64,000 nucleotides of DNA from assembly GCA_905250025.1 (NCBI GenBank), contig CAJNOJ010000108.1:62001-126000 (forward strand), given 5' to 3'. This DNA comes from Adineta ricciae. Its lineage: Eukaryota; Rotifera; Eurotatoria; Adinetida; Adinetidae. The notes under the pieces are model-generated. The model was not told where the DNA came from. It was given only the letters and a program-made list of their open reading frames with translations, and ran no database searches. The translations under genes were made by a program, and so were the position numbers. Below, in pieces: positions 22,980 through 31,886 of the stretch. Each line of letters opens with the position of its first letter. Position 1 is the first letter of the stretch.

Positions 22980-23783
22980 TCACAGACCACATCGTTTGCG
23001 ACATTCCTCAATACCAAGTGATGGATTGCCCTGAATATTCATACGAATATCCTCGATCGTTGTAATGTTCAAACCACCGAGATTAGCACCAATGACGGTT
23101 GCTGGTAAGGCACCAAAGTAAGCATTGGCAATGGTCAACACACCAGGATCTTCGCTGTTAAATGCTGCTACGAATGTAGCAGGTTCGCAATTTAAGTTCT
23201 GTTCGAAATGGATGGCACCTTTGGGAAAAACTGCGACTTGATTTTTTGTTATTTCATTCATGATGAAAGCGGCACCATTTTCTTGATAAAATCCTACTTG
23301 AAAATGACCGTCAACTGAGTAATTGATTTCTGTTGCACGAGGATGTGTGTGTGGTAGATTGATACCACATGGACCGAGAAATCCGAGTGTCATAGCGACA
23401 CCGTGACCGATTAAACCAGGGAAATTGCTGGACTAAACAAAAGGTATCTTAGCAAATTTGATAACAAATATTGGAACACTTACAGTAGCAGAAACTGTAC
23501 GGCCACCAGTACCTCTTGAGACTCCTGTTGTTGCATTATTGAAATCGAAAATAAAATCTGATGGATTGGTTTTGGATAGAAGATTCAATTCCGAAAAGGA
23601 GTTTTTAATTGCTTCTAAACGTGCCGGTGCCAATGGATTCGATAAATTAGCTACTTTGGTAGTTGATGTAGATCCTGCTGTTGGCATTGTTGCAGTGGTA
23701 GTGGTACCGTTGGTGGCTAGTTTTTGACAAACGTCGGCATTGGCAAAAATCGTCAGATAGCATAAGAATTGAGTTAAGTCCAT
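22980..23783 (-). CDS. Secreted germin-like cupin
   Basis: Two exons (23484-23783 and 22980-23432) give 250 residues. A signal peptide is followed by a Thr-rich linker, then a single cupin barrel. Motif 1 is GINLPHTHPRATEINYSVDG, giving the His-x-His and Glu metal ligands. Motif 2 is VFPKGAIHFEQNLNCEPA, giving the third His. All four ligands of Mn-germins are present. In plants, fungi and slime moulds such proteins include oxalate oxidases, superoxide dismutase-like germins and spherulins of the extracellular matrix. Activity here cannot be told from sequence. Germin-like proteins are unusual in animals, so a fungal, plant or protist origin is likely (inference). It has acquired an intron with normal GT-AG ends. 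Confidence 0.88.
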
Positions 23784-24255
23784 GATGAAGTAAACTTTGT
23801 TGCAGTTGTAACGAAAGTGAAAATAGAAGTCTATTCGCTTGGTATTTATAGCTATTCATGCGCAGTAGGAGAGAAATCTGTGATATATAAAAATCAAGCG
23901 TTGTTGCGCTCGCTTCCATACATGAGTCATTAAAAATCATGTATAGACGTGGTTAAACTGTGATTTTGCGTTCGCGACTGTATAATTTTGAAGAAAAGCG
24001 ACACGGGGAAGGAACAGAATCCATCGATTGTCATTGCAACAATTTCGCGTATAAATATGTCGAGATTTTTTCGTAAAAACAGAATTGAATTTGACAAGAA
24101 GCCACTTAAGCGAAAATAACTAAGACGTAAGTAACGCCAATGTTGTTTTGTTTGCTTTTCAAGGATAAGCCGAGCGAATGTTCCTTTGAAGTTTTGAAAC
24201 ACTACTAAGTTTATCTAATTGATATTTTGTAATAGACGAAAACCCTTAATTATCA
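23784..24255. other. Divergent promoter region between germin-like and NOX genes
   Basis: About 470 bp separate two divergent start codons. There are TATA-like stretches but no assignable regulatory motif and no gene. Confidence 0.4.
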
Positions 24256-26943
24256 ATGGATCCTACGCCAGACGAACTACGACATGCATCGAATCGGTCG
24301 AACAATGGTTTGCGAACCGATTCGAATCGATCGAACAATGGCACGCGAGGTGCATTGCGAAATTTCGGAAGTGCTCTTCGGGCAAGGTTGTCTGCGGCAC
24401 CCGCTCTATCACGAATAGTCTCGTAAGTCTCATTTCGATGAATCTATCGGAATTTACTTGGAAAGATTTGTTTAGAGGAAAAACTACTTTGAGTGCTCCG
24501 TCGGATCGAGTCATTACCCGACTGTTTAATGATCTTTTTCATGAACCAATATCAGATCAACATCAGAAATACTTTAGAAAATACTTTGGTTCAGATATTA
24601 GCACAAAAACTTTTAATATTCAAGACTTCGGTCGTATGTTTCAAATGAAGAAAATGCTCAGTATGTTATTTTGTTCCAGAACAGAACTCTTCTGATATTC
24701 CTTCTTCTATCTCATATAGGTCAGCGTCTATTAACTGTGTTCAATCTGCAATCATCAGTGCAAGCCGATCAGATCTTGGGTAGTGATATTATTCGTATAG
24801 CTCGTGTACTTTGGAGTTCCCCTACATCTGTGAAAGCGCTGATATTATTCAAATTATTTGATGAAGACAGTGACAATAATGTAACAATAGACGAAATTCG
24901 TTCATTCTATGAAAAATATTCCTCAGAATTCAATTTTTTCAAAGACGATGAACATCACAAAGAGGTTATCAACATATTTCTACGTGGCTTATTTCCAATC
25001 AATGACGAAGATGTACAACAAGAGTCACTAACCTTTGACGAATTCTACAGCACTCTCCGACACAATCCTGACGTTTTCAAATCACTTTATCTCATTAGTA
25101 TTCCTGATCAAGACAAAGAAGAAGAAAAAGAATTTACCTTCTCCCAACGTTGGTGGCTGTACATAAAGAATAACAGCAATCGTCTTGCTTTTCTCGCCAT
25201 TTATATCCTGATCCAAATCGCATTGATTATCTACGTGTGTATCTATCGAACTGTTATCATTCAAAACACATCTGTCTGGCGAGTGATCGCCCGCGTGGGC
25301 GGAATGTTAGTTAATTTCAACTTCGTCGTTGCTGTTATTCTCATGCTTAAACAATTGATGACGTTCATACGGAAAATTGACTTTCTTCGTTCAATTGTGC
25401 CAGTTGACGATCACATTGATGCACATCGACTGGTCGGTGGAATGATGTTCGTGTCTTCAATGGTACATGCTTTTGGTCACACGGTTCATTTTGCTACGCA
25501 TACGGATGGTGAGTAATGAATTGAAAGTTGACATTCATCGATATGATTATGTTTTTGTAGAACAAACATGGGCACAATCGATGTTCACAACAGCAGCAGG
25601 AATAGGTTGGGTGGGTCAAGCTGCTACGATTACTGGTGATATTTTATTTGTTTTTATGATCATTATGTTCGTTTGTGCTTTGCAATGTATCCGACAACGA
25701 ACTGGTTTCTATCGCCTCTTTCAATATACGCATCTTTTGTTTTGGCCAATATTTATTCTGATGGTTCTTCACGCGCCAGACTTTTGGAAATGGGCTATTG
25801 GGCCAATGATACTATTTGTCCTAGAGAAAATTTATCTACTCAAACGCTACTCGACAAAATATGGTCGAACTCGTTTGAAATCAATTCGTATTGAAGATAA
25901 GAATGTTTTAACATTGATCATCGAACGACCAGAACGTCTTGAATTTCGAACCGGTAGTTACATCAATGTTTGTTTACCATCGATTAGTACGTATCACCTT
26001 TTCTTCCTAATTGATCATTGATGAAAGCGAAGTACTTGTCTTTTTATTTGTAGCAAAAATCGAATGGCATCCATTTACAATCTCCAGTGCACCTGAACGA
26101 AGGGATACTATTCGTTTGAATATAATGAAGAAAAAAAATTGGACTAGAAAAGTTTACGAGCACTTCGATAAGCGCATAAGTCTTACTACTTATCCAAATC
26201 AATTAACAGATATTGCAGTTGTCACCAATAACGAACAGACTGTCGACACTGCCAGAGAACTCGTATTTGAAGCAAAAGATCCGGATGCAGTTATTTGGGT
26301 AGAAGGTCCATTTAGTACTTGTACGTCGTACATCTTTGATCATGAGCATGTTGTTTTAATTGGTGCTGGTATTGGAGTGACACCTTCGATCAGTGCTTTA
26401 GATAGTTTAATTCAACGGTTACAAAAGGAAAGGTGTGTTTGTCCTAATTGCAGTACACTCAGTTATAATCATGAACGGCTAAATAGTCAAAAACTGAAAA
26501 AAATCGATTTTGTTTGGATTAATCGTGAAATTGGGAACTTCTCATGGTTTCTCGATATTCTCGGTGAATTTGAAGCCGAACAAGAAAAATACTTGAGTAC
26601 TCTTACAACATCATCAAGTTCCAGTCAACAAGCACCGAAAAGATACCTCGACTTTCATTTATATTGTACATCGTTACGAAAGAATGAACGTGCGATGCTC
26701 GATCAACTTCCATACGACCTTGTTGCGAATATGTACGCGGCAATGCAACGACGAGATATGCATACAAAATTGAAAGCACCAACACATGTCGGACGACCAC
26801 CATGGAAATTGTTATTTTCGAAATTTAAAGCAGAGCAGAAATCAACGGCGGTGTTTTTTACAGGAAATACAATGATGGCAGGTGAAATCAAACAACACTG
26901 TGACGAATTAGGATTCGCTTTTCAACATGAGCCTGGATTTTAA
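24256..26943 (+). CDS. NOX5-like calcium-regulated NADPH oxidase
   Basis: Five exons (24256-24422, 24476-24660, 24720-25508, 25561-25986, 26054-26943) give 818 residues. It transfers electrons from NADPH across the membrane to oxygen, making superoxide. An N-terminal EF-hand region includes FKLFDEDSDNNVTIDEI and a weaker second hand. The ferric-reductase core of about six helices has paired haem histidines: DAHRLVGGMMFVSSMVHAFGH in one helix and YTHLLFWPIFILMVLHAP in another. FAD binding is shown by HPFTISSAPE and NADPH binding by VVLIGAGIGVTPSISALDSL. The NADPH lobe runs to a C-terminal aromatic Phe. EF-hands at the N-terminus and no peroxidase domain favour NOX5 over DUOX. The chosen ATG opens a disordered Ser/Asn/Arg-rich leader that splices in frame. 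Confidence 0.92.
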
Positions 26944-27572
26944 AACATAAACGAACAAATAATCAATTATTATTTTTTTTTTTTCAAAATAAAATTATCA
27001 TATGTAGAATGATATGGAATGATAAATCACGATTAGATGAAATAGAATTTATCTCATTAGTTTTCTATCGTTCTACTTTGTTATTCCCCTCGTGTTGGAA
27101 GGTCAGGTGAACTGTATCCATCCTGATTTGACGTCGAGGAGAAGAATGTCTATCGATAGATTCGATTATGTATTTGATATTGTAATTTGTATTCGAGTTA
27201 TCTTCTTCCGATGCTGTAGAATCAAATAGAAACAAATACATCCAAGAATATCCTTAAATATATAGTTGATATGAAAGTACAAAGACACAAAGGACTGATA
27301 CCAAGCGATACTACATTACTATATCCTCTTGGATTTTTATATAAGAATGAAAAGCTATATTGATATTAATAGACTGATTGATGCAGATGGCATTGGTTCG
27401 TTATTCTTCTAGTATAGATATATAAACTTACCTTTCATTGGTGACTAAAGTATTGATAAAATGAAGTAAATATGAGAACAGGTACGCGTAATATTTGATA
27501 TTTTTCTTCATTTACACTTTTGGGCAGTGCGCGACAGAAACGAACACAAATATACATTAAATACCAATTTTC
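26944..27572. other. Intergenic upstream of ispE, contains hairpin repeat copy A
   Basis: The AT-rich spacer has a poly(T)/AATAAA-like 3' end for the NOX gene near 26975-26995. It also contains repeat A (27084-27165) and an AT-rich 400 bp leading to the ispE start. No other gene was seen. Confidence 0.5.
27084..27165 (+). repeat. Hairpin-rich dispersed repeat, copy A
   Basis: It shares with copy B (32366-32459) the blocks AAGGTCAGGTGA, then CTGT, then ATCC, and an identical end GTCTATCGATAGATTCGA. Three hairpins can be drawn: TTCC with GGAA, TCCT with AGGA, and the palindrome TCTATCGATAGA. The first two stems differ in sequence from copy B but still pair. Confidence 0.6.
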
Positions 27573-28490
27573 ATGTTTCTTCGTGCACCATGCAAAGTCA
27601 ATTTAACGTTGGATGTATTTAATAAAAAGGAACATACGGATGTTTATCATAATCTTGACTCGCTTGTCGTTCTATTTGGGCAACCAGCTGACGAACTGCG
27701 CATCTATATAGAACCAACTAACAACAAGACTTCTATTACATTGCTATGCAGCGATTCTCGGCTACCAAATGATAATCGAAATTTGGCCTATCGAGCAGCT
27801 GACGTCTATCTTAAACATATTGACGAACCTTTTCATGTAAAAATAGAACTGGACAAGCACATACCAGCTGAGGCGGGACTCGGTGGTGGGAGTAGCGATG
27901 CGGCGGCTGTTTTGCGCGCTTTAAATATTTATTTCAATCATAGGATTGATCAAACAACATTAATGGCAATGGCAGCTCGTCTAGGCTCTGATGTTTCGTC
28001 CTTTCTGGCAGAAAAGCCTGTGCGCATGCGCGGCTATGGTGATGTTATTGAAACACTACATTGTGAACTACCTTCTCTATATGGCGTAGTCGTACGCCCC
28101 AATACAGGCGTATCAACAGCACATGCATATGCACTTCTCGATGCGATTCCAAACCGACAGCCAGGCAGTAGTACCGAACAGCTTCTTTCTTGTATACGTG
28201 CCGATAAAGACAGTTCAATCGATATTGTCACACTACTAGCAAAGAAACTTTCCAACGACTTTGAATCTGTCATATTTGCTGCTTATCCGACTATCGCAGA
28301 AGCATATGATATGGTACTCAGTGCCGGTGCGCTGCGTGCTCTTCTGTGTGGAAGTGGTTCGGCTGTTTTCGGTCTCGCTCGAAATAGTCAGCACGCGGAA
28401 CAATTAGTAAATCAACTGGCTCCTCATTTTCCTTTTGTAACCAATGTTTCAACTGCTACTCTGGAAACGTTTACCATCAATCACTTTTGA
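27573..28490 (+). CDS. ispE: 4-diphosphocytidyl-2-C-methyl-D-erythritol kinase (IspE), bacterial type
   Basis: IspE phosphorylates CDP-methylerythritol, the fourth step of the MEP isoprenoid pathway. The single exon encodes 305 residues, close to the usual bacterial length. It opens with APCKVNLTLDVF, carrying the active-site Lys. It has the GHMP-kinase ATP loop (IPAEAGLGGGSSDAAAVLRA), the catalytic Asp in ARLGSDVSSFL, and the late GHMP motif ALLCGSGSAVFGLA. There is no plastid or mitochondrial leader, so it should be cytosolic. Animals make isoprenoids from mevalonate and lack this gene, so it is a strong candidate for transfer from bacteria. It uses more CGC and GCG codons than its neighbours. 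AATAAA at 28607-28612 provides a eukaryotic 3' end. ispF follows 581 bp downstream on the same strand. Confidence 0.95.
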   Translation: MFLRAPCKVNLTLDVFNKKEHTDVYHNLDSLVVLFGQPADELRIYIEPTNNKTSITLLCSDSRLPNDNRNLAYRAADVYLKHIDEPFHVKIELDKHIPAEAGLGGGSSDAAAVLRALNIYFNHRIDQTTLMAMAARLGSDVSSFLAEKPVRMRGYGDVIETLHCELPSLYGVVVRPNTGVSTAHAYALLDAIPNRQPGSSTEQLLSCIRADKDSSIDIVTLLAKKLSNDFESVIFAAYPTIAEAYDMVLSAGALRALLCGSGSAVFGLARNSQHAEQLVNQLAPHFPFVTNVSTATLETFTINHF

Positions 28491-29071
28491 CAGTGTCTAT
28501 GTTTTCTTATATTTCAGATTGAAGTCTTCAAGAATTTGACTTGCTAATCATTTCCGTCTGACTTTCTTTTCATTCCGATGTGTCTTATCTCACTCATTTT
28601 CTTATTAATAAAAGGTATTTACTTGAGCTTAGCACTGTTTTCTTTGCTTAATATATGAAATGCTGAATCAATATTGGCCGATTTACTGCTGTATGATGCA
28701 GAAAAATATGGTGTATAACGGTTCTTTATGCAATATATGCATTTTGATAAAATATCTTTTGTAGGCTTTATTATGGCTTTATGAAGCACTTAAGTCTAGA
28801 GTGCAGTCAGATGGATTTTGAAAATAATCTTGTCGATTATTTTAGATTCGCTTCTCCACCATCGAGATAATTTCAACTGACTCTCAATTTCCATTATTTG
28901 TCTTGTATATAAAGTGCAATCGGGTCATAGAAATAAATCACAGCTCATAATTGAAACACTTACGTACGACTAGGAGTCTCTAAAGTTCTGTTCATTGATA
29001 ATCGACAGTTTGAATCGGTTCTCGAGCTTGCCTATTAGTATAATCAGGTCCCAAGTACTTTTAGGTACTAT
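28491..29071 (+). promoter_or_regulatory. ispE 3' end and ispF promoter region
   Basis: It contains AATAAA (28607-28612) about 115 bp after the ispE stop and a TATATAA box at 28906-28912 about 160 bp before the ispF ATG. This suggests separate transcription of the two genes rather than a bacterial-style operon. No open frame was recognised. Confidence 0.55.
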
Positions 29072-29572
29072 ATGACATCGAAACAAACACGAGTTGGTAT
29101 GGGCTTTGATGCTCATCGTTTCCTTCCAACAAAAAACGGCCCTTCGAACAAAATTATGCTCTGTGGAGTACCAGTTCCGTCAGAATATGATGTGGAAGCT
29201 AATTCAGATGGTGATGTCGGAATTCATGCACTCGTGGACGCTTTACTCGGTTCAATAGCTGCAGGTGATATTGGTATGCATTTTACTCCAAATGATTCAC
29301 AATGGGCAAGAGCAAAATCTGAAATCTTTCTCAAACATGCTTTAAAAATGGTGCACGAGAAAGGTGGTGAAATAGTTAATATAGATATCACTATTATCGG
29401 TGAAAGACCTCGTGTGTTTCCACATCGAGAAAATATGCGTAAGATGCTTAGTGAATTATTGGCATTAGATATAGATCGTGTCAGTGTCAAGGCGACTACA
29501 ACGGAAAAAATGGGTTTTACTGGAAGAAAAGAAGGCATTGCTGCACAAGCAATAGTTAGTGTCCTTGTGTGA
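29072..29572 (+). CDS. ispF: 2-C-methyl-D-erythritol 2,4-cyclodiphosphate synthase (IspF), bacterial type
   Basis: IspF cyclises the product of IspE to methylerythritol cyclodiphosphate, releasing CMP. The single exon encodes 166 residues, the normal length. GMGFDAHRF supplies the Asp-x-His metal ligands. SDGDVGIHALVDALLGSIAA supplies the third metal His and the substrate loop, followed by GDIGMHF. KATTTEKMGFTGRKEGIA is the conserved CMP-binding end. All catalytic residues are present. No targeting peptide is visible. A TATA box lies about 160 bp upstream and AATAAA at 29586-29591, 14 bp after the stop, so it seems expressed as a eukaryotic gene. IspF trimers need no further subunit. Its neighbour ispE makes its substrate. 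Confidence 0.96.
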   Translation: MTSKQTRVGMGFDAHRFLPTKNGPSNKIMLCGVPVPSEYDVEANSDGDVGIHALVDALLGSIAAGDIGMHFTPNDSQWARAKSEIFLKHALKMVHEKGGEIVNIDITIIGERPRVFPHRENMRKMLSELLALDIDRVSVKATTTEKMGFTGRKEGIAAQAIVSVLV

Positions 29573-29585
29573 TTATGTATCGTTT

Positions 29586-29591
29586 AATAAA
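29586..29591 (+). promoter_or_regulatory. Poly(A) signal of ispF
   Basis: An exact AATAAA hexamer 14 bp after the ispF stop codon. It supports use as a eukaryotic transcription unit. Confidence 0.6.
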
Positions 29592-29770: not shown

Positions 29771-31886
29771 TTAGACAGTCATATTATTAAGGATTGATAA
29801 CCGTTCAACAAGTTCATTCGATAAAACGAGTTCTGAATGATCAGATGGTAGTTTAAGTTGCTGAATACGAAGTGCTTTGGAAGCGAATTCATATGCTAAA
29901 GAATAATCTTTACATTCTTCGAAAAGTAAGCCTATTTGATAACATGTTCGAGCGACATATGGATGTGTGGGAGCAAGTAGAACTTCTCGCATTCGAAGTG
30001 CTTCTTTAAAAGAAACAAGTGCTTCATTCACCATACCCATTGCTCGCTGTACTAATCCTAAATTATGATAAGTTTGTGCATGTCCGGGATGATCTGTAGG
30101 CATTTTGCTCTTGTAAAAAATCAATGTTTTGTAGTTTAACTCTAATGCTCGATCGTATTGCTTTTCGAGATAATATGCATAGCTAAGTCGATTGAAATGG
30201 AAAATTGTTTCAGTATTATAATTATTCGAATCACAATTATAATAGAAAGTAGCTTGTTCAAGTACAACCAAAGCATTTTTTGAATCATTCAATTCCATAT
30301 AAACAGTACCTAAACCGGCTAAAACTGTTCCATACTCATAACTATGTTGAGGTAATAATCGACGATACAACAATTTTGCACATTTGAAATAATGAATGGC
30401 TTGTTGATGTTTACCTAAAAAACGATACATACGAGCTAATTGATAATGTATATTAGGACGATCTTCATGATTGACAGGTAATTTTCGTAAAAGTCGCTGA
30501 AAATGTTGTACAGCTAATGAATATTCACTTATATGAGCCAATACACGACCATATAAAATGGTCGCATTTGTTTCCGAAAGTCGTTGATGCATATAAGCAT
30601 CATATTCGCGACTTCGTTGTGCTGCTTCATTTGATCCTGTCATTTGAATATGCCACAGATGATCTAAATCACCATAGAAAATCTCAGTGATGACGAATGT
30701 TGTTCCGAGATCGAATAAGAATTCTTCTTCGTCTACTATGAAACTTTGCTGTCTGATATCTGCACCGATAAGATCAGGTGTTAGATGGAGATCAACGTTG
30801 ATTTGAAACAGGATGAATTGATATGGATCTGTTCGAGATCGATCTCGATCAGAATCCGCGAATGCTAAAGCAATTTGACGAGAGTAAGTTGAAGAGAAAA
30901 AGCCATTACTCGATACAGTTGAATCGACTTTTAATTGTTCGACCTCATCACGATGTAGTATTGTACCGCGATATACAAAAAATGGTTTCAAATCACGATA
31001 TCGTATCAACGCTAAACTTTCACATAGATCAAAGATAAAATATCGGAATGTATACAAAGCATGTACATTATTTGAACGTAGAGTTTTGTTCACCAGAGAA
31101 GAAAGAAAACCTGGTTTTGTATACCATTTAATTGCATCACATGATCGATAATTTCGTTGAAATTCGTCTATTTCTTTCAGTTGAGAAGGTTGATGATAAA
31201 AACATTTTCGACATTCTCGTAACATTTGAAATTTCGCTTCTTTGGAATTATGAGGCATGTTTATAAAAAGTACTAGAAAATTTGAACATCTATCGCTGTG
31301 TCTCGACAAGACAACACTAACCTCGAAATGTATGTGTCCAAACGAATGCACCCAAATCATGTTTTAGATTTCGTAATGCTTTTTCTGCTGAATTGCAAGT
31401 AGAAATTAGGCCTGTATCATTAATATGTTTCTCTGTAGTACTGATAAGGTTTTGTAAATTGCTGCAGAGTGAATCCCATTGATCAAAGTTCTGAATTAAT
31501 TTCAAGTGATTTTCTAAAGTTTTACTTGGCTTCGTCTCAATGCGATTTTCATTTTCGACGTTCGCTTTGTCTTTTTGTAACTGTAAAGTAAGAATAGCTT
31601 GAAGTTGCCGATATGAATGGAGTTGCGAAAGCATCGTTTGTATTTGATCATTGCTGAAATTGATAAATAAAAGAATAATACAATGTTGTGATGAAGCTTT
31701 CTTGAAATATTTTATGCATTGCAGAAAGTTTTCACAATGAAAAATAAGATACTGATGGATTTTCCCATAATCAAGAATCTTCATTTCGAATTCGGTTCGA
31801 TCTTTAATAACAAGAAGAGAAATACCTTCACGCATCAATACCGACCGCCGTAATCGACAATTGGTAAGCTTCTTGGAATTTTCCAT
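29771..31886 (-). CDS. Arginine-type ADP-ribosyltransferase fused to TPR repeats
   Basis: Two exons (31322-31886 and 29771-31272) give 688 residues. The first ~190 residues have no recognised domain. The middle is an R-S-E class mono-ADP-ribosyltransferase: VYRGTILHRDEVEQLK holds the Arg, GFFSSTYSRQIALAFA the Ser-Ser-Thr motif, and DEEEFLFDLGTTFVI the Glu-x-Glu catalytic turn of arginine-specific enzymes. From about residue 415 there are at least six TPR units of kinesin-light-chain type, such as YGTVLAGLGTVYMELNDSKN, AQTYHNLGLVQRAMGMVNEA and ARTCYQIGLLFEECKDYSLA. The enzyme should transfer ADP-ribose from NAD to a protein held by the TPR region (inference). No signal peptide is seen, so it is probably intracellular. 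Similar ART-TPR proteins are expanded in bdelloids, from general knowledge. Confidence 0.88.

What the first reader, a model, noticed from the sequence alone, without database searches (positions are those of the whole stretch)
27573..29572. Two consecutive MEP-pathway enzymes, IspE and IspF, side by side in an animal genome
Both reading frames are full length, intronless and keep all catalytic motifs (GHMP loop AGLGGGSSD and Asp in LGSDVSSF for IspE; GFDAHRF, SDGDVGIHALVD, KATTTEKMGFTG for IspF). Animals make isoprenoids from mevalonate and lack this pathway. The enzymes act in direct succession (CDP-methylerythritol to its 2-phosphate to the cyclodiphosphate), so co-retention suggests a working segment rather than random transfer. 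The remaining enzymes (Dxs, Dxr, IspD, IspG, IspH) are not in this window. Possible roles are a complete hidden MEP route, use of diet-derived intermediates, or production of methylerythritol cyclodiphosphate as a stress metabolite (all inference).
Basis: partly seen in the sequence, partly recalled or inferred. Interest (0 to 1): 0.92.

Follow-up and report, generated by a model that had tools for sequence, protein, structure and literature searches.

The report
Orphan bacterial isoprenoid gene pair, rotifers
A bdelloid rotifer, a microscopic animal, carries two neighbouring bacterial genes for consecutive steps of an isoprenoid-precursor pathway that animals lack; related rotifers have them too, but four other enzymes of the pathway were searched for and not found, so the pair probably does something else.

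Summary
Window 27573-28490 is a full-length IspE and 29072-29572 a full-length IspF, single copy, in Adineta ricciae, beside animal genes. Orthologues occur in Adineta vaga, Rotaria and Didymodactylos carnosus; in A. vaga IspF, IspE and the neighbouring oxidase gene are numbered consecutively. So it is an old bdelloid acquisition, not contamination. IspE groups with Armatimonadota-type and IspF with alphaproteobacterial sequences: probably two donors. Dxr, IspD, IspG and IspH gave no match in the genome; Dxs could not be tested. So no MEP pathway is evident. Catalytic and zinc residues are kept, but 20 of 21 bdelloid-like IspFs changed two near-invariant residues in the lid that holds methylerythritol phosphate. 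The pair does not follow desiccation tolerance; gene models look damaged in R. sordida and R. magnacalcarata, and A. steineri has no listed entry. Best reading: an orphan kinase-cyclase module recruited to another CDP-polyol; the substrate is inferred, not shown. Main rival: a relic being lost.

The parts
27573..28490 (+). ispE-like gene (GHMP kinase, 305 aa), intronless coding region, bacterial origin
29072..29572 (+). ispF-like gene (YgbB family, 166 aa), intronless coding region, bacterial origin
27482..27527 (+). candidate 5' UTR intron of the ispE gene (GT...AG, 46 bases, pyrimidine-rich 3' end); by eye, no transcript data
28607..28612 (+). AATAAA polyadenylation-like signal 117 bases after the ispE stop, suggesting a separate transcription unit (inference; another AATAAA lies at 28932)
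29586..29591 (+). AATAAA polyadenylation-like signal 14 bases after the ispF stop (inference)
24219..26943 (+). upstream neighbour: NADPH-oxidase-5-like animal gene with three short predicted introns (24661-24719, 25509-25560, 25987-26053); its start was not determined; it marks the locus in A. vaga too
29771..31360 (-). downstream neighbour: tetratricopeptide-repeat protein gene on the opposite strand

Best explanation
Two bacterial genes, an IspE apparently from an Armatimonadota-like donor and an IspF apparently from an alphaproteobacterium-like donor, entered the genome of an ancestor of the sampled bdelloid rotifers and came to lie side by side. They were kept as an orphan two-step module outside the MEP pathway. 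Step 1 (inferred from family and retained residues): the IspE-like kinase uses ATP to phosphorylate a hydroxyl of a CDP-linked small polyol (Lys8 and Asp140 at the catalytic site, Tyr25, His26 and Tyr186 around cytidine, AGLGGGSSD as ATP loop). Step 2 (inferred): the zinc enzyme IspF (Asp13, His15, His52; Glu145 for the second metal) lets the new phosphate attack the CDP diphosphate, releasing CMP and a cyclic diphosphate. As no enzyme that makes CDP-methylerythritol or consumes methylerythritol cyclodiphosphate was found, and the lid of IspF that holds the polyol phosphate differs at two otherwise near-invariant residues in all bdelloid-like rows but Didymodactylos, the likeliest substrate is another CDP-polyol available in the animal; its identity is unknown. 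The product would be useful but dispensable, since some lineages seem to be losing the pair.
For: Linkage and age: A. vaga IspF I4U23_030923, IspE I4U23_030924 and NOX-like I4U23_030925 on a 13.9 Mb contig; 8 of 20 bdelloid-like IspF rows share their exact longest-contig length with an IspE row, Didymodactylos among them; four Rotaria entries are single gene models reading IspE then IspF. Constraint: at columns at least 95% identical in the other listed rows, bdelloid-like rows keep the residue in 94.5% (IspF, 45 columns) and 95.8% (IspE, 69 columns), against 41% and 40% elsewhere; A. ricciae to A. vaga identity is 89% (IspF) and 76% (IspE), against 71% (over 85% of the query) for the neighbouring animal gene. 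Not the MEP pathway: no match at E <= 0.001 for Dxr, IspD, PF01128, IspG, IspH, each of which rings in 9 to 14 of 14 control genomes, while HMG-CoA reductase is found in this genome; the three IspD hits at E 0.01 to 0.07 lie in a 298-aa nucleotidyltransferase frame (PF00483) and in two 193-aa frames without a Pfam match that look eIF2B-gamma-like by eye. Lid: Asn44 for His in 20 of 21 bdelloid-like rows against 0 of 100 others, and no Pro at 72 in 20 of 21 against 3 of 100; both fall in the two segments that PMC2151065 (passages) names as binding the ME2P part. Donors.
Against: No substrate, expression or activity was shown. The methyl-contact Ile (I67) is unchanged, and F86, which I equate with E. 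coli Leu76 by recalled numbering, is as in the alphaproteobacterial relatives: this fits the original substrate equally well. The lid argument is post hoc (chance 0.02 that two of two changed columns fall in the lid, 7 of 45 columns) and may rest on one event per site. IspE shows no matching substrate-site change. A single origin of the bdelloid IspFs is not shown: Didymodactylos fell apart from the other bdelloid rows and is unresolved against nine unnamed rows; for IspE the bdelloid branch is 89/88, not starred, and one search left Didymodactylos outside. Damage in R. sordida and R. magnacalcarata and no listed A. steineri entry argue against an important function. Overall GC of the pair (0.43, 0.40) is above that of the four neighbouring genes measured (0.35 to 0.39).
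Confidence: 0.45

Rival explanations
1. A relic: two captured bacterial genes that once had a use and are now being lost, with little or no joint function today. The constraint seen reflects past or single-gene selection.
For: The R. magnacalcarata IspF entry (standing for 11 contigs) has no similarity after about residue 120 and lacks the KATTTEK motif; two R. sordida IspE entries lack the first 45 residues, the third about the first 95, and all three lack 20 internal ones. No A. steineri entry is listed for either gene although its NOX-like neighbour has six. One copy only in a degenerate tetraploid.
Against: IspE and IspF full length in A. ricciae, A. vaga, R. socialis and D. carnosus, the last giving the deepest bdelloid divergences known to PMC7943196; near-invariant columns kept at about 95% in both proteins; both differ less between A. 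ricciae and A. vaga than the neighbouring animal gene. The damaged forms are gene models; I had no DNA of these species.
Confidence: 0.27
2. The pair does its original chemistry on CDP-methylerythritol or upstream intermediates taken up from bacterial or algal food, making methylerythritol cyclodiphosphate as a protective or signalling metabolite.
For: Catalytic and methyl-contact residues unchanged. Methylerythritol cyclodiphosphate accumulates under oxidative stress, signals, and may be an antioxidant (abstract of PMC11192765).
Against: No IspD match, so CDP-methylerythritol itself would have to be absorbed intact (inference: unlikely for a charged, scarce nucleotide). The lid differs. Distribution does not follow desiccation tolerance.
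Confidence: 0.13
3. The whole MEP pathway works in the animal: the missing enzymes are too divergent, unassembled, or supplied by symbionts.
For: Dxs could not be tested; the assembly may be incomplete.
Against: Dxr, IspD, IspG and IspH gave no match in 130 Mb, where IspE, IspF and HMG-CoA reductase are found.
Confidence: 0.04
4. On origin only, and compatible with the readings above: both genes came in one transfer from a single donor with a mosaic gene set, rather than from two donors.
For: They share a contig in the eight cases where the listings let me see linkage; no Armatimonadota IspF was at hand to compare.
Against: IspE sits in a set in which 4 of 5 named rows are Armatimonadota (22 rows unnamed), cut off from two alphaproteobacterial and three other named IspEs by a 100/98 branch; IspF sits with six named Alphaproteobacteria and 15 unnamed rows, cut off from 15 other named bacteria by a 100/98 branch.
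Confidence: 0.2
5. Assembly chimera or bacterial contamination.
For: Overall GC of the pair is a little above that of its neighbours; nothing else.
Against: Same three-gene order in the separate 13.9 Mb A. vaga sequence; animal genes in the window; third-position GC (0.32 and 0.25) within that of the neighbours (0.22 to 0.34).
Confidence: 0.01

Closest known systems
Bacterial and plastid IspE (4-diphosphocytidyl-2-C-methyl-D-erythritol kinase, TIGR00154)
   Same: Sequence over the curated cut-off, fold, ATP loop, Lys and Asp of the catalytic site, cytidine-binding residues.
   Different: Sits in an animal genome in which the enzymes before and after the pair were not found.
Bacterial and plastid IspF (2-C-methyl-D-erythritol 2,4-cyclodiphosphate synthase, TIGR00151); named nearest rows are Alphaproteobacteria, several of them IspDF fusions
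   Same: Fold, zinc ligands, metal-binding Glu, CDP site, methyl-contact Ile.
   Different: Stand-alone in an animal; the lid His (E. coli His34) is Asn and the loop Pro is Thr, Ala or Ser in 20 of 21 bdelloid-like rows, Didymodactylos excepted; no IspD or IspG match in the genome.
Horizontally acquired metabolic genes of bdelloid rotifers (PMC3499245: passages seen; PMC4632278: abstract start and a term search)
   Same: Bacterial genes in an animal context. A passage of PMC3499245 already notes that bdelloids may metabolise some compounds only partially, which would suit an incomplete pathway.
   Different: Two consecutive enzymes of one pathway from apparently different donors, adjacent, with other enzymes of the pathway missing; term searches in the main texts did not find these genes.

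Membership tests
IspE (TIGR00154) | Sequence over the curated family cut-off | tested here: met
   182.5 bits, cut-off 138.7
IspE (TIGR00154) | Catalytic-site Lys and Asp, cytidine-binding His and stacking aromatic residue (E. coli Lys10, Asp141, His26, Phe185 in passages of PMC11541488) | tested here: met
   K8, D140, H26, Y186 in the window; D140 and Y186 in 30 of 30 bdelloid-like rows, K8 and H26 in 25 of 25 that reach them (equivalence by alignment and recalled numbering)
IspE (TIGR00154) | Phosphorylates CDP-methylerythritol | not testable with these tools
   needs an enzyme assay
IspF (TIGR00151) | Sequence over the curated cut-off and IspF fold | tested here: met
IspF (TIGR00151) | Zn ligands Asp, His, His and a metal-binding Glu or Asp | tested here: met
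   D13, H15, H52 in 21 of 21 bdelloid-like rows; position 145 is Glu in 18 and Asp in 2 of the 20 that reach it
IspF (TIGR00151) | Near-invariant His of the ME2P-binding lid (E. coli His34); conserved, but I do not take it as needed for membership | tested here: not met
   N44 in the window and 20 of 21 bdelloid-like rows; His in 100 of 100 other listed rows and 18 of 19 from named genomes
IspF (TIGR00151) | Makes methylerythritol cyclodiphosphate | not testable with these tools
   needs an enzyme assay
Working MEP pathway | Dxr, IspD, IspG and IspH in the same genome | tested here: not met
   no match at E <= 0.001; looser IspD hits lie in other or probably other genes
Working MEP pathway | Dxs in the same genome | not tested
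   twelve identical requests were answered 'busy'
Ancestral bdelloid horizontal transfer | Grouped with bacterial sequences and shared by distant bdelloid genera in the same arrangement | tested here: met
Ancestral bdelloid horizontal transfer | Trees show one origin for all bdelloid copies | tested here: inconclusive
   IspE 89/88 but Didymodactylos apart; IspF two changes, unresolved
Ancestral bdelloid horizontal transfer | Expressed from the animal genome | not testable with these tools
   no transcript data at hand

The most novel reading that the evidence does not exclude
Bdelloid rotifers assembled from two different bacterial donors a new two-enzyme animal pathway that phosphorylates and cyclises a CDP-polyol into a cyclic diphosphate not known from animals, with a remodelled IspF lid as the mark of the new substrate.
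Probability: 0.3. Interest if true: 0.85.

Novelty: new variant of a known kind. Interest (0 to 1): 0.62.

Why it matters
Bdelloids are known for capturing many foreign genes. A linked pair of consecutive enzymes from apparently different donors, found without four other enzymes of the pathway and shared over the deepest sampled bdelloid divergence, makes a sharp test of whether captured enzymes are rebuilt into new chemistry or merely drift away. It also touches drug-target reasoning: IspE is promoted as a target because it is absent from the human proteome (abstract of PMC11541488), and here it exists in an animal.

Tried and rejected
Contamination or misjoin: rejected by A. vaga synteny. 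Hidden full MEP pathway: rejected for Dxr, IspD, IspG and IspH; Dxs untested. An animal ISPD/CRPPA enzyme as source of CDP-ribitol for IspE: considered, but PF01128 gave no match and the loosest IspD hits lie in a nucleotidyltransferase frame and in two frames I read by eye as eIF2B-gamma-like, which had no Pfam match at 0.001. Second copy in the same genome: none at DNA level. Desiccation-specific role: distribution does not fit. Literature: 'rotifer + IspE', 'bdelloid + horizontal gene transfer + isoprenoid', 'bdelloid + methylerythritol', 'Adineta + mevalonate', 'rotifer + cyclodiphosphate' listed no paper on this pair; the sponge paper that came up (PMC4784904, passages) concerns HMG-CoA reductase. 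Supplements could not be read, so the A. ricciae transcript tables of PMC3499245 remain unchecked. The structure comparisons give family, not function.

Full report

Whose genome. The gene just upstream is an NADPH-oxidase-5-like animal gene with three short predicted introns. Its protein is 100% identical, over 98% of my query, to an annotated Adineta ricciae protein, on a contig of the same length (329,919) as that of the record identical to the window's IspE. Downstream lies a tetratricopeptide-repeat gene; WDR19-like, discoidin-receptor-like and zinc-finger exons lie elsewhere in the window. Third-position GC of the pair (0.32, 0.25) lies in the range of four neighbouring genes (0.22 to 0.34), while their overall GC (0.43, 0.40) is a little above it (0.35 to 0.39). 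AATAAA signals follow both genes, and a 46-base GT-AG candidate intron lies before the IspE start; without transcripts these are leads only.

Age and linkage. Named relatives in the two protein searches are Adineta vaga, Rotaria socialis, R. magnacalcarata, R. sordida, two undescribed Rotaria species (Silwood1, Silwood2) and Didymodactylos carnosus. In A. vaga the locus tags run I4U23_030923 (IspF), _030924 (IspE), _030925 (the oxidase-like gene), all with a longest contig of 13.9 Mb, so the three-gene arrangement is shared by two species and two separate assemblies. Of 20 bdelloid-like IspF rows, 8 have exactly the same longest-contig length as an IspE row, including D. carnosus (87,182); four Rotaria records are single gene models that read IspE then IspF. 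PMC7943196 (passages) says D. carnosus gives the deepest molecular divergences known in the class, so the simplest reading is an acquisition before the sampled bdelloids split.

Origin. The careful IspE tree (46 chosen rows) puts the 14 bdelloid rows on one side of a branch (89/88, not starred), in a set of 41 rows where 4 of 5 named bacterial rows are Armatimonadota (Capsulimonadales counted so from recall), the fifth a MAG named Fibrella, and 22 are unnamed. That set is cut off from two alphaproteobacterial and three other named IspEs by a 100/98 branch. A quick tree of 89 rows left Didymodactylos outside the other bdelloid rows and put the same two alphaproteobacteria next to the whole set. 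The IspF tree (46 rows) puts ten bdelloid rows with six named Alphaproteobacteria and 15 unnamed rows, cut off from 15 other named bacteria by a 100/98 branch. Inside it, the bdelloid rows share a starred set of 19 with nine unnamed stand-alone IspFs, and the fork is unresolved; a quick tree of 86 rows needed two changes, with Didymodactylos apart. So one origin of the bdelloid IspFs is likely from linkage but not shown by the trees. The two genes point to two donors; I had no Armatimonadota IspF to exclude a single mosaic donor.

Missing partners. Whole-genome searches gave no match at E <= 0.001 for Dxr, IspD, IspG, IspH, or for the Pfam IspD family PF01128, to which animal ISPD belongs (recalled); the same searches rang in 9, 14, 9, 9 and 13 of 14 control genomes. 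At E <= 10, three weak IspD hits appear (best 0.0104). One lies in a 298-aa nucleotidyltransferase frame (PF00483); the other two lie in near-identical 193-aa frames without a Pfam match that look like eIF2B-gamma by eye. HMG-CoA reductase is present in three pieces, as expected for an animal with the mevalonate pathway. Dxs was not tested: the tool was busy in all twelve attempts.

Constraint and decay. At columns at least 95% identical in the other listed rows (the nearest hits, not a random sample), bdelloid-like rows keep the residue in 94.5% (IspF, 45 columns) and 95.8% (IspE, 69 columns), against 41% and 40% at the rest. Between A. ricciae and A. vaga, IspF is 89% and IspE 76% identical over the full length, while the neighbouring animal gene is 71% over 85% of the query. 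Against this, the R. magnacalcarata IspF entry (standing for 11 contigs) has no similarity after about residue 120; two R. sordida IspE entries lack the first 45 residues and the third about the first 95, and all three lack 20 internal ones; the four merged Rotaria models also end IspE some 29 residues early. These are gene models and I had no DNA to check. No A. steineri entry is listed for either gene although its oxidase neighbour appears in six entries. By PMC7943196, R. socialis and R. magnacalcarata do not tolerate desiccation and the other species named here do; the pair is full length in R. socialis and not listed for A. steineri, so it does not follow desiccation tolerance.

Active sites. 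Mapped through the numbering in PMC2151065 (passages), the zinc ligands (D13, H15, H52), the ribose-binding D66 and the methyl-contact I67 of IspF are kept in 21 of 21 bdelloid-like rows; the metal-binding position 145 is Glu in 18 and Asp in 2 of 20. In IspE (PMC11541488, passages), D140 is kept in 30 of 30 rows and K8 and H26 in all 25 that reach them. A scan of all near-invariant IspF columns shows just two where most bdelloid-like rows depart: N44 instead of His (20 of 21; others His in 100 of 100) and no Pro at 72 (20 of 21; others Pro in 97 of 100). Among 19 further IspFs from named genomes, His is kept in 18 and Pro in 19. PMC2151065 states that the ME2P part is bound by contributions from two helices, residues 33-37 and a flexible loop 61-71 of the E. 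coli enzyme, and that the His34 side chain hydrogen-bonds carbonyls of that loop. By offset from the zinc ligands, position 44 is His34 and position 72 falls in the loop. D. carnosus alone keeps His and Pro. Seven of 45 near-invariant columns lie in these segments, so two of two there has a chance of 0.02, post hoc and with few independent events. In IspE the departing columns (139, 155) are not residues named in the passages I saw.

Mechanism. Shown: family, fold, conserved catalytic residues, linkage, partners not found, lid changes. Inferred: the kinase adds a phosphate to a CDP-linked polyol; the cyclase closes it on the CDP diphosphate and frees CMP. The substrate is unknown; that the metal and CDP sites are kept while the polyol lid changed is why I prefer another CDP-polyol over CDP-methylerythritol. 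The relic reading is the strongest rival and cannot be excluded without transcripts, DNA-level selection tests and enzyme assays.

Novelty. Captured bacterial enzymes are a known feature of bdelloids (PMC3499245, passages). Five paper searches listed nothing on this pair, and searches for isoprenoid, terpenoid, erythritol or cyclodiphosphate terms in the main text of five bdelloid papers (PMC3499245, PMC4632278, PMC10809525, PMC12220480, PMC5916493) found no mention of it (one 'terpenoid' hit in PMC3499245 concerns ubiquinone). Supplements were not readable, so the genes may be listed there.

Noticed in passing
L115:347-2352 (genome contig C277 near 109486): Two adjacent, divergent, long open frames: a nucleotidyltransferase (PF00483, reads like RmlA) and a dehydratase (PF16363, reads like RmlB); possibly a second captured pair of consecutive enzymes (dTDP-sugar synthesis). 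The RmlA and RmlB names are by eye; Pfam.
   Followed up: partly
window 29072-29572: The window's own IspF is not among the 120 listed database proteins (best 95%, P0001), while its IspE is (P0121, 100%): IspF may be missing from the published A. ricciae annotation.
   Followed up: no
window 22983-23432 (-): Cupin_1 domain (E 3.9e-21) in an open frame near the oxidase gene; could be another captured gene.
   Followed up: no
window 27642-27644 (IspE residue 24): The usual DGYH motif reads DVYH here and DIYH in A. vaga; the Gly is kept in 22 of 25 bdelloid-like rows that reach it (the window and its identical record P0121 are two of the three exceptions) and in 91 of 91 others. A. vaga also has Asn for Asp in the GGGSSD loop.
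   Followed up: partly
L116 and L117 (contigs C313, C216): Two near-identical copies of a 193-aa open frame that looks eIF2B-gamma-like by eye (no Pfam match): the assembly keeps two copies of some loci, while the IspE-IspF pair is single.
   Followed up: no
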